From an uncultured Veillonella sp. (GTDB lineage: Bacteria > Bacillota_C > Negativicutes > Veillonellales > Veillonellaceae): a stretch of DNA of 5,568 bases. The stretch is taken from NCBI GenBank assembly GCA_900765235.1, contig CAAFRK010000225.1, forward strand, positions 1 through 5,568, read 5' to 3'. A model generated the notes under the pieces. That model worked only from the letters and a program-made list of their open reading frames with translations. It did not search any database and was not told the origin of the DNA. Position numbers and translations under genes: made by a program. This document shows positions 4,405 through 5,318 of the stretch, one piece after another; within the stretch, counting starts at the first letter, position 1, and the number at the start of each line of letters is the position of its first letter.

Positions 4405-5196
4405 ATGAGTCTAGCAGATACACAATACCTCGGTATTATTGAAAATATTTTAGAACACGGTACATATGGTCAAAATCGTACGGGCATTGCGACCTATAAA
4501 TTGCCTCATCAAATTATGCAATTCGACTTGCAAGAGGAATTTCCCATTTTGACTACCAAATTTGTAGCTTTCAAAACGGCTGTAAAAGAATTGTTGTGGA
4601 TTTGGCAAATGCAGTCCAACGATGTACGTAAATTACAAGAAATGAATGTACATGTATGGGATGAATGGATGCGCGAAGATGGTACCATTGGTAAGGCTTA
4701 TGGTTATCAAATCGCAAAGTACAAACAATTAGACAATCTCATCAAAACAATCAAAGAAGATCCAGATAGCCGTCGTATGATTGTAACCTTATGGAATATT
4801 GAGGATTTAGATGATATGGCGTTACAACCATGTGCGTATGAAACATTATGGGATGTAGCTGACGGATACTTGAACTGTATGCTCATTCAACGCAGTGGCG
4901 ATATGGGCCTAGGCGTTCCATTTAACACGGCTCAATATGCAGCGTTACAATGCATGATTGCGCAGGTAACAGGTCTTAAACCTGGTAAATTTACTCATGT
5001 TATTAACAATGCTCATGTGTATGAAAACCACGTAGAAGCATTGCGTGAGCAATTGGCACGCCGCGACCAAGCATTGCCTGCACCAAAAATTATTGTGAAT
5101 CCTGATGTAAAAGACTTCTATGATTTCACACCAGAGGATGTTACATTAGACGGGTATGAACATCTAGGTAAATTGTCCATGACTGTTGCTGTTTAG
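4405..5196 (+). CDS. thyA: Thymidylate synthase ThyA (B. subtilis ThyA / phage phi3T type)
   Basis: ThyA makes dTMP from dUMP using 5,10-methylene-tetrahydrofolate, releasing dihydrofolate in the cytoplasm. The 263 residues compare with 264 in E. coli. Catalytic Cys143 sits in LQPCAYETLW. Phosphate-binding arginines are Arg25 (NRTG), Arg123-Arg124 (DSRR) and Arg163 (QRS). Glu62, Trp85, Tyr99, Asp166, Asn174 (PFN), His204 and Tyr206 occupy the expected places, and the protein ends VAV. The segments KELLWIWQ, SNDV, PCxYET, MIAQVTG and NPxVKDFYDFT match B. subtilis ThyA/phi3T rather than E. coli; for example, the His after the catalytic Cys is Ala here. The usual Gly-Asp before xHxY is Asn-Asn (201-202). 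The start is set by AGGGGG (4395-4400), four bases before the ATG, a rather close spacing. folA follows 133 bp downstream and recycles its product, supporting an operon. The final 18 bases form unit 1 of a tandem repeat. Confidence 0.96.
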   Translation: MSLADTQYLGIIENILEHGTYGQNRTGIATYKLPHQIMQFDLQEEFPILTTKFVAFKTAVKELLWIWQMQSNDVRKLQEMNVHVWDEWMREDGTIGKAYGYQIAKYKQLDNLIKTIKEDPDSRRMIVTLWNIEDLDDMALQPCAYETLWDVADGYLNCMLIQRSGDMGLGVPFNTAQYAALQCMIAQVTGLKPGKFTHVINNAHVYENHVEALREQLARRDQALPAPKIIVNPDVKDFYDFTPEDVTLDGYEHLGKLSMTVAV

Positions 5197-5318
5197 CATT
5201 ATATTCATGACAATTGTTAAATAGCATAATATATATGGCTGTTGCTATATAGTATTGTGTTCATAGCCATTGCTAAATGGAATCATATGTATGACTGTTG
5301 CCATATAGTATTAACTGA
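5179..5318 (+). repeat. Five-unit 28-bp degenerate tandem repeat spanning the thyA stop codon
   Basis: Units lie at 5179-5206, 5207-5234, 5235-5262, 5263-5290 and 5291-5318, each exactly 28 bp with no gaps. Against the consensus (ATGACTGTTGCTATATAG plus a TATTATATTC tail) they match at about 25, 20, 25, 18 and 23 positions. Eleven columns are identical in all five units, eight of them in the first 18 bases. Unit 1 is the real end of thyA (codons MTVAV and stop), so the array probably grew by duplication of that end. The sequence before 5179 is unlike the repeat. The last unit stops at the folA ribosome binding site. The CTATATAG core is itself palindromic. Neighbouring units can also pair, for example ATAGCA 5221-5226 with TGCTAT 5243-5248, and ATGGCT 5235-5240 with AGCCAT 5265-5270. 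Unit 4 can form CCATT-GCTA-AATGG alone. Confidence 0.9.

What the first reader, a model, noticed from the sequence alone, without database searches (positions are those of the whole stretch)
5179..5318. A 28-bp tandem repeat built from the 3' end of thyA fills the thyA-folA gap
Five contiguous 28-bp units, in perfect register, start inside the thyA coding sequence (its last five codons and stop) and continue to the folA ribosome binding site. The parental copy appears to be the gene's own terminus. Units have diverged to 18-25 of 28 matches with the consensus, so the array is not a recent slip, yet spacing has stayed exactly 28 bp. It could tune the folA leader (RNA folding between units, translational coupling) or vary in copy number between strains.
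Basis: seen in the sequence. Interest (0 to 1): 0.72.

Follow-up and report, generated by a model that had tools for sequence, protein, structure and literature searches.

The report
Old stuttered repeat between thyA and folA
In one branch of the bacterium Veillonella, a short DNA stretch covering the end of the thyA gene was copied several times head to tail, filling the gap before folA; it is real, old and inherited, but looks like one of many ordinary copying stutters in these genomes, not a new device.

Summary
Five 28-bp units run from the last five codons of thyA almost to the folA ribosome-binding site; 0 of 5000 shuffles reach the periodicity. The better unit is a 56-bp dimer, A-B-A-B-A. 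The window is V. infantium-like Veillonella. The array occurs once in each of 7 of 28 family genomes, all in one supported clade: five units in V. parvula, T11011-6, G010, G012, G013 and the window; three (54-56 nt less) in V. infantium and V. rogosae. Five of six array-less rows have a 12-14-nt gap and the same ThyA C-terminus, so the thyA end is older. Best reading: tandem duplication across the stop codon, then 56-bp slippage. Such arrays are common in Veillonella intergenic DNA (20 against 1-3 in shuffles), cover stops as often as random placement predicts, and hemL shows a parallel. Function is not shown: divergence is ordinary (23rd of 50 gaps), folding is weak, 0 of 44 pairs compensate. 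Faster change in T11011-6 (15 versus 1) leaves some room for one.

The parts
4405..5196 (+). thyA (thymidylate synthase), 263 aa, ends MTVAV*
   Evidence: ORF; 257 relatives by translated search, best 80 kept; enzyme name recalled
5179..5206 (+). unit 1 (A): last five codons and stop of thyA plus 10 nt
   Evidence: TRF and the repeat finder
5207..5234 (+). unit 2 (B); first 18 nt identical in window, V. parvula, G010, G012 and G013
5235..5262 (+). unit 3 (A)
5263..5290 (+). unit 4 (B); 26 nt in four relatives
5291..5313 (+). unit 5 (A, 23 nt), nearest to folA
5317..5324 (+). GAAAGAGG, likely folA ribosome-binding site, invariant in the 8 array rows
   Evidence: alignment; role inferred
5223..5261 (+). 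best single hairpin candidate (unit 2 tail with unit 3 head); -16.0 to -9.5 kcal/mol in the five intact five-unit rows, -8.5 for the altered one in T11011-6
   Evidence: no compensatory change
5330..5566 (+). folA (dihydrofolate reductase), 5' part, runs off the window
   Evidence: ORF; name from recalled family features and position after thyA

Best explanation
The array is a degenerate intergenic minisatellite born by local tandem duplication. In the ancestor of the V. parvula/infantium/rogosae clade a segment of about 28 bp spanning the thyA stop codon was duplicated downstream of itself. The first copy stayed in frame, so ThyA was unchanged. The A-B pair was then duplicated as a 56-bp block to give five units, which diverged by point mutation and have since been inherited position by position. 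In V. infantium and V. rogosae the array later shrank by one dimer. The result lengthens the thyA-folA gap from about 13 to about 134 nt while a folA ribosome-binding site is kept. Most likely it is a tolerated spacer with little or no dedicated function. Shown: structure, clade limits, single locus in the genomes searched, copy change of one dimer, ordinary substitution rate. Inferred: slippage as the mechanism, order of duplications, direction of the 5-to-3 change, lack of function.
For: Periodicity beyond shuffles. Array at one place in 7 of 28 family genomes at E 0.001. Of 14 rows, 8 have the array and form one clade (99/99), 5 have a 12-14-nt gap, and V. caviae has an unrelated 109-nt gap; all 6 array-less rows share the ThyA terminus. 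Five-unit forms in both halves of the clade with unit 2 nearly identical between them; gaps of 80 nt in the three-unit forms against 134-136. V. parvula 400-kb sample: 20 TRF arrays in cut-out intergenic pieces against 1, 1, 1, 1, 3, 1, 3, 1, 1, 2 in ten shuffles. 6 of 33 non-coding arrays (period up to 60, score 50 or more, two genomes) cover a stop codon, random placement mean 6.5; the thyA array counts twice in the 6, once per genome. Parallel at a HemL-like gene: one copy in V. parvula, G012 and G013, three 23-bp copies of its last codons and stop in V. rogosae and G010 (7 of 14 loci printed). Array divergence between V. parvula and G010 is 0.092, 23rd of 50 intergenic gaps.
Against: Five-unit arrays persist in lineages that differ at 40-44% of four-fold sites, and there are no indels in 131 bp between V. 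parvula and G010. T11011-6 has 15 lineage-specific changes against 1 in G010 in the array, but 13 against 14 in coding sequence, as if constraint had been lifted there (or sequence imported); I chose this pair after seeing its divergence. Five intact rows fold somewhat better than shuffles (9 to 69 of 400 shuffles reach them).
Confidence: 0.75

Rival explanations
1. A functional folA leader: the A/B units pair in the thyA-folA transcript into one or more hairpins that set mRNA stability, processing or folA translation; damaged arrays then decay.
For: Unit 2/3 hairpin predicted in the five intact rows. The two extreme rows have z -2.06 (G010) and -2.27 (G012), while T11011-6, with a 2-nt deletion in unit 3, has z +1.04 and accelerated change (15 versus 1; Fisher p 0.003).
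Against: Window z -1.04 and 31 of 200 shuffles fold as well. 58 of 1000 unit-column permutations reach the MFE. 0 of 44 consensus pairs has a compensatory change (six similar rows, low power). The predicted folds differ between rows. In six substitution-walk tests 22, 127, 37, 156, 174 and 69 of 500 random walks are at least as stable as the observed row. Ordinary substitution rate.
Confidence: 0.14
2. A termination-reinitiation relay: in the window units 1, 2, 3 and 5 each hold ATG, four codons and a stop; the stops of units 1 and 2 lie 10 nt before the next unit's ATG, so that ribosomes leaving thyA could step along towards folA.
For: ATG plus four codons plus a stop is kept in unit 2 (or its equivalent) in 8 of 8 rows, with TAG, TAA or TGA, and in the last unit in 7 of 8 (read by eye).
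Against: Expected anyway from descent from the thyA terminus; unit 4 starts ATA or GTA in 5 of 6 five-unit rows; unit 5's stop is 21 nt before folA; by eye no ribosome-binding site precedes the small ATGs; folA has its own site.
Confidence: 0.05
3. A dispersed or mobile repeat family (REP, MITE or MIRU-like) that landed at the thyA end.
For: Some dyad character of the units; tandem units in a gap between genes are also seen for MIRU.
Against: One place per genome in 7 of 28 genomes at E 0.001. At E 10 the other hits in seven genomes are 14-34 nt scraps, best E 0.011. A unit profile finds only the thyA-folA array with E below 0.7 in a 400-kb V. parvula sample.
Confidence: 0.02
4. The array brings an extra promoter or regulator-binding sites for folA.
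For: AT-rich with TATA-like words; in M. tuberculosis the MIRU-holding senX3-regX3 gap has promoter activity (PMC4213456, passages).
Against: No sigma-70-like match of 9 of 12 or better lies in 5179-5329 (one + strand match at 5333-5362 lies inside folA), and the four matches in 4280-5400 are fewer than the shuffle mean of 5.8. Other promoter types are not covered.
Confidence: 0.04

Closest known systems
Tandem repeats in the rnc-fpg1 gap of Mycobacterium tuberculosis (ETR-F/VNTR3239; PMC2734929, passages seen)
   Same: Clade-specific tandem array filling a gap between neighbouring genes that is only a few base pairs in relatives outside the clade, ending at the next gene's start; length varies.
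   Different: That array holds five identical 37-bp copies, starts 40 bp after the stop, varies between strains, and its length was linked to mRNA level. Ours has degenerate 28/56-bp units, starts inside the upstream gene, is known to vary between species only, and I have no expression data.
MIRU in the senX3-regX3 gap of M. tuberculosis (PMC4213456, passages seen)
   Same: Several repeat units between two genes, with composition differing between strains (three 77-bp units, or two 77-bp and one 53-bp).
   Different: MIRU are a dispersed family (41 locations according to PMC2734929); ours was found at one locus per genome.
hemL-terminus 23-bp array in Veillonella G010 and V. rogosae (found here)
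   Same: Tandem copies of a gene's last codons and stop, limited to some species.
   Different: Three copies, less diverged (88% match), 23-bp period, ends in the gap rather than at a ribosome-binding site.

Membership tests
Degenerate intergenic tandem array (minisatellite) of slippage origin | Head-to-tail units beyond chance | tested here: met
Degenerate intergenic tandem array (minisatellite) of slippage origin | Copy-number change by whole units between relatives | tested here: met
   5 versus 3 units, one dimer
Degenerate intergenic tandem array (minisatellite) of slippage origin | Array-free state at the same site in outgroups | tested here: met
   12-14-nt gap in 5 of 6 array-less rows
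Degenerate intergenic tandem array (minisatellite) of slippage origin | Slippage (rather than another duplication process) made the copies | not testable with these tools
   inferred from pattern only
VNTR | Copy number varies among strains of one species | not testable with these tools
   the collections searched hold one genome per species
MIRU/REP/MITE dispersed repeat | Similar copies at several loci of a genome | tested here: not met
   one place per genome in 7 of 28; weak scraps only elsewhere
Structured RNA leader | Compensatory base changes supporting conserved helices | tested here: inconclusive
   0 of 44 pairs in 6 rows; few rows and little variation, so power is low
Structured RNA leader | Match to a known RNA family | tested here: not met
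   only a match at E 0.28, 18.6 bits, below its gathering score of 43, in 5100-5400
CRISPR array | Near-identical repeats separated by unrelated spacers | tested here: not met
   contiguous diverged units with no spacers

The most novel reading that the evidence does not exclude
The intact five-unit array is a folA leader under selection: alternating A/B units form mutually exclusive hairpins, so removing one dimer or breaking one unit abolishes the function and lets the rest decay, as the T11011-6 acceleration and the loss of fold strength in T11011-6, V. infantium and V. rogosae would suggest. A gene's own stop region would then have been turned, by stuttering, into the regulator of the next gene.
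Probability: 0.1. Interest if true: 0.6.

Novelty: new member of a known kind. Interest (0 to 1): 0.3.

Why it matters
It gives a phylogenetically placed example of how an operon gap can grow: a duplication across a stop codon leaves the protein intact, so gene ends can seed spacer DNA. The comparison with hemL, single-copy in some species and triplicated in others, makes the process visible. It also warns that AT-rich repeats in Veillonella gaps are common and need no special function.

Tried and rejected
Strong-constraint reading: between the two halves of the array clade, intact five-unit rows differ by 6-11% in the array while four-fold sites differ by 40-44%, which first looked like strong selection. 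Rejected as special, because the 140 nt upstream of thyA (recQ-thyA gap with about 25 nt of recQ) are about equally slow and the array ranks 23rd of 50 gaps in the V. parvula-G010 comparison. In one search gaps under 60 or over 400 bp, and gaps without clean flank matches, were dropped before the count; I did not count how many.

3'-end preference reading: other arrays cover stop codons too, but at the rate of random placement (6 of 33 against a mean of 6.5 at score 50; 9 of 59 against 9.3 at score 40). Start codons are covered less than expected (2 against 6.4, 12 of 400 placements as low; 2 against 8.7, 3 of 400). Gene calls are simple ORF calls with the longest start, so the start figure is soft.

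Dispersed repeat, Rfam family, sigma-70 promoter and terminator. Literature: searches (5 papers; 107 papers, 8 listed; 0; 0; 7; 1; 1) listed no paper evidently about this array or the Veillonella thyA-folA gap; I judged by the listings only. Searches looked for parallels; two papers were opened, for passages only.

Full report
Observation. TRF reports 5178-5313 with period 28 (score 97) and 5179-5313 with period 56 (score 165). At lag 28, 69 of 112 positions match and at lag 56, 63 of 84; none of 5000 dinucleotide-preserving shuffles reaches either, and 500 shuffles of 5101-5400 give no TRF score above 57. Units 1, 3 and 5 are clearly alike (1-3 18, 1-5 19, 3-5 20 of 23); units 2 and 4 share 16 of 23, no more than 1-2 or 2-5 over that stretch, but 20 of 28 over the full length; the lowest pairs are 1-4 (13) and 4-5 (14). 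With the higher 56-lag score, A-B-A-B-A with a 56-bp repeat describes the array best. Unit 1 is the last five codons and stop of thyA.

Where it occurs. A ThyA search of genome contigs found 257 relatives and kept 80 loci. The window is Veillonella: its closest named relative over 5.2 kb is V. infantium at 93%, and over 595-2400 the unnamed G010 at 97% and V. infantium at 96%. I read the thyA 3' side of the first 40 of the 80 loci, and 12 of the 15 loci from the 14-genome genus search, the other 3 not matching my end pattern. The array is present in V. infantium, V. sp. T11011-6, V. rogosae, V. parvula, G010, G012 and G013. A DNA search of 28 genomes of the family finds it in those 7, once each, at E 0.001. 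V. denticariosi, G014, V. tobetsuensis, V. atypica and V. agrestimuris have 12-14 nt including the stop, V. caviae an unrelated 109-nt gap, and these six share the ThyA ending MTVAV*. The other loci printed have short or overlapping gaps or, as in V. sp. VA139 and the Negativicutes MAG L007, longer ones without this repeat by eye.

History. A tree of 14 rows of thyA plus folA, without the array, puts the 8 array rows in one clade (99/99), with V. denticariosi and G014 beside it (root at the midpoint for drawing only). Five units occur in both halves of that clade, and unit 2 is nearly the same in both (first 18 nt identical in window, V. parvula, G010, G012 and G013), while units 2 and 4 of one array differ more (20 of 28 alike in the window). 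So five units were probably present in the common ancestor, units have not been homogenised, and the three-unit arrays of V. infantium and V. rogosae (80-nt gaps against 134-136) are most simply two separate losses of one dimer. The order of the first duplications is inferred.

Is it a mobile repeat? No sign of it. At E 10 the hits away from the thyA-folA array in seven genomes are 14-34 nt long with best E 0.011, and a profile of 36 units (V. parvula's own among them) finds only the array itself with E below 0.7 in a 400-kb sample of V. parvula (the array's own units have E 0.012 or better).

Is it special for Veillonella? No. The 400-kb sample is 20 stretches spread along the V. parvula chromosome, one of them placed to hold thyA. 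It has 39.6 kb of intergenic DNA by simple ORF calls; 19 TRF arrays of score 50 or more lie mostly in it, and TRF on the cut-out intergenic pieces finds 20, against 1 to 3 in ten shuffles. The thyA-folA array is the highest-scoring mostly intergenic one apart from a 66/198-bp array in L165 that I take, from recall of such patterns, for a CRISPR-like array; an array at L154 7175-7301 across a called gene start scores higher (184). In 800 kb of two genomes, 33 non-coding arrays of period up to 60 include 6 that cover a stop codon (the thyA array twice, once per genome), against a mean of 6.5 under random placement; 2 cover a start against 6.4. So lying across a stop needs no special mechanism: the first copy keeps the protein intact. 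A second clear case is a HemL-like gene (name from recalled family features): single ending in V. parvula, G012 and G013, three 23-bp copies of the last codons and stop in G010 and V. rogosae, and in V. infantium and T11011-6 a rearranged ending with altered last residues (which printed 7 of the 14 loci).

Function tests. RNA: window MFE -40 kcal/mol against a shuffle mean of -36.1 (z -1.04, 31 of 200 reach it). On a slightly shorter stretch, z values are window -1.14, V. parvula -1.37, G010 -2.06, G013 -0.91, G012 -2.27, T11011-6 +1.04, V. infantium +0.38, V. rogosae +0.76. A control that keeps the repeats and permutes unit columns is reached in 58 of 1000. Random same-type substitutions give a fold at least as stable as the observed row in 22, 127, 37, 156, 174 and 69 of 500 walks for six pairs. 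Six five-unit rows give 44 consensus pairs, none with compensatory change. Promoters: no site at 9 of 12 or better lies in the array. Rate: between V. parvula and G010 the array differs at 9.2% with no gap, 23rd of 50 measured gaps, co-directional median 11.8%. Against this, the T11011-6 array has 15 own changes to G010's 1, while the coding sequence has 13 and 14 (Fisher p 0.003; pair chosen). That could be relaxed constraint after its 2-nt loss in unit 3, or an imported stretch. The same test for the window gives 4 to 2 and 27 to 27 (p 0.67).

Verdict. A real, old, vertically inherited tandem array of slippage type, specific to one Veillonella clade among the genomes searched, most likely a tolerated spacer. 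A regulatory role is not excluded but has only weak support. Closest published parallels are the rnc-fpg1 repeats and the MIRU of senX3-regX3 in M. tuberculosis (passages only). Whether it acts like either is untested; it is not a MIRU-type dispersed repeat, because it was found at one place per genome.

Noticed in passing
L186 (G010) and L187 (V. rogosae), 3' end of a HemL-like gene; same site L182 8343-8415: Three tandem 23-bp copies of the gene's last codons and stop; one copy in V. parvula, G012 and G013; V. infantium and T11011-6 have a rearranged version that changes the last residues (KIGDTLKN instead of KISDTLL).
   Followed up: partly
window 4290-4404 (recQ-thyA gap); G012 locus L116: The gap upstream of thyA holds another small repeat; G012 carries extra copies of a roughly 23-nt AT-rich unit there.
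   Followed up: no
L146-L165 (V. parvula sample): Short-period AT-rich tandem arrays are far more frequent in intergenic pieces than in shuffles (20 against 1-3); in the wider two-genome sample they seem depleted across start codons.
   Followed up: partly
L163 12255-13190: A coding tandem array of 60-bp period with 15.6 copies in V. parvula; by eye the unit encodes an Ala-, Glu- and Gln-rich stretch.
   Followed up: no
L154 7175-7301: A 15/45-bp tandem array across the called 5' end of a minus-strand gene in V. parvula.
   Followed up: no
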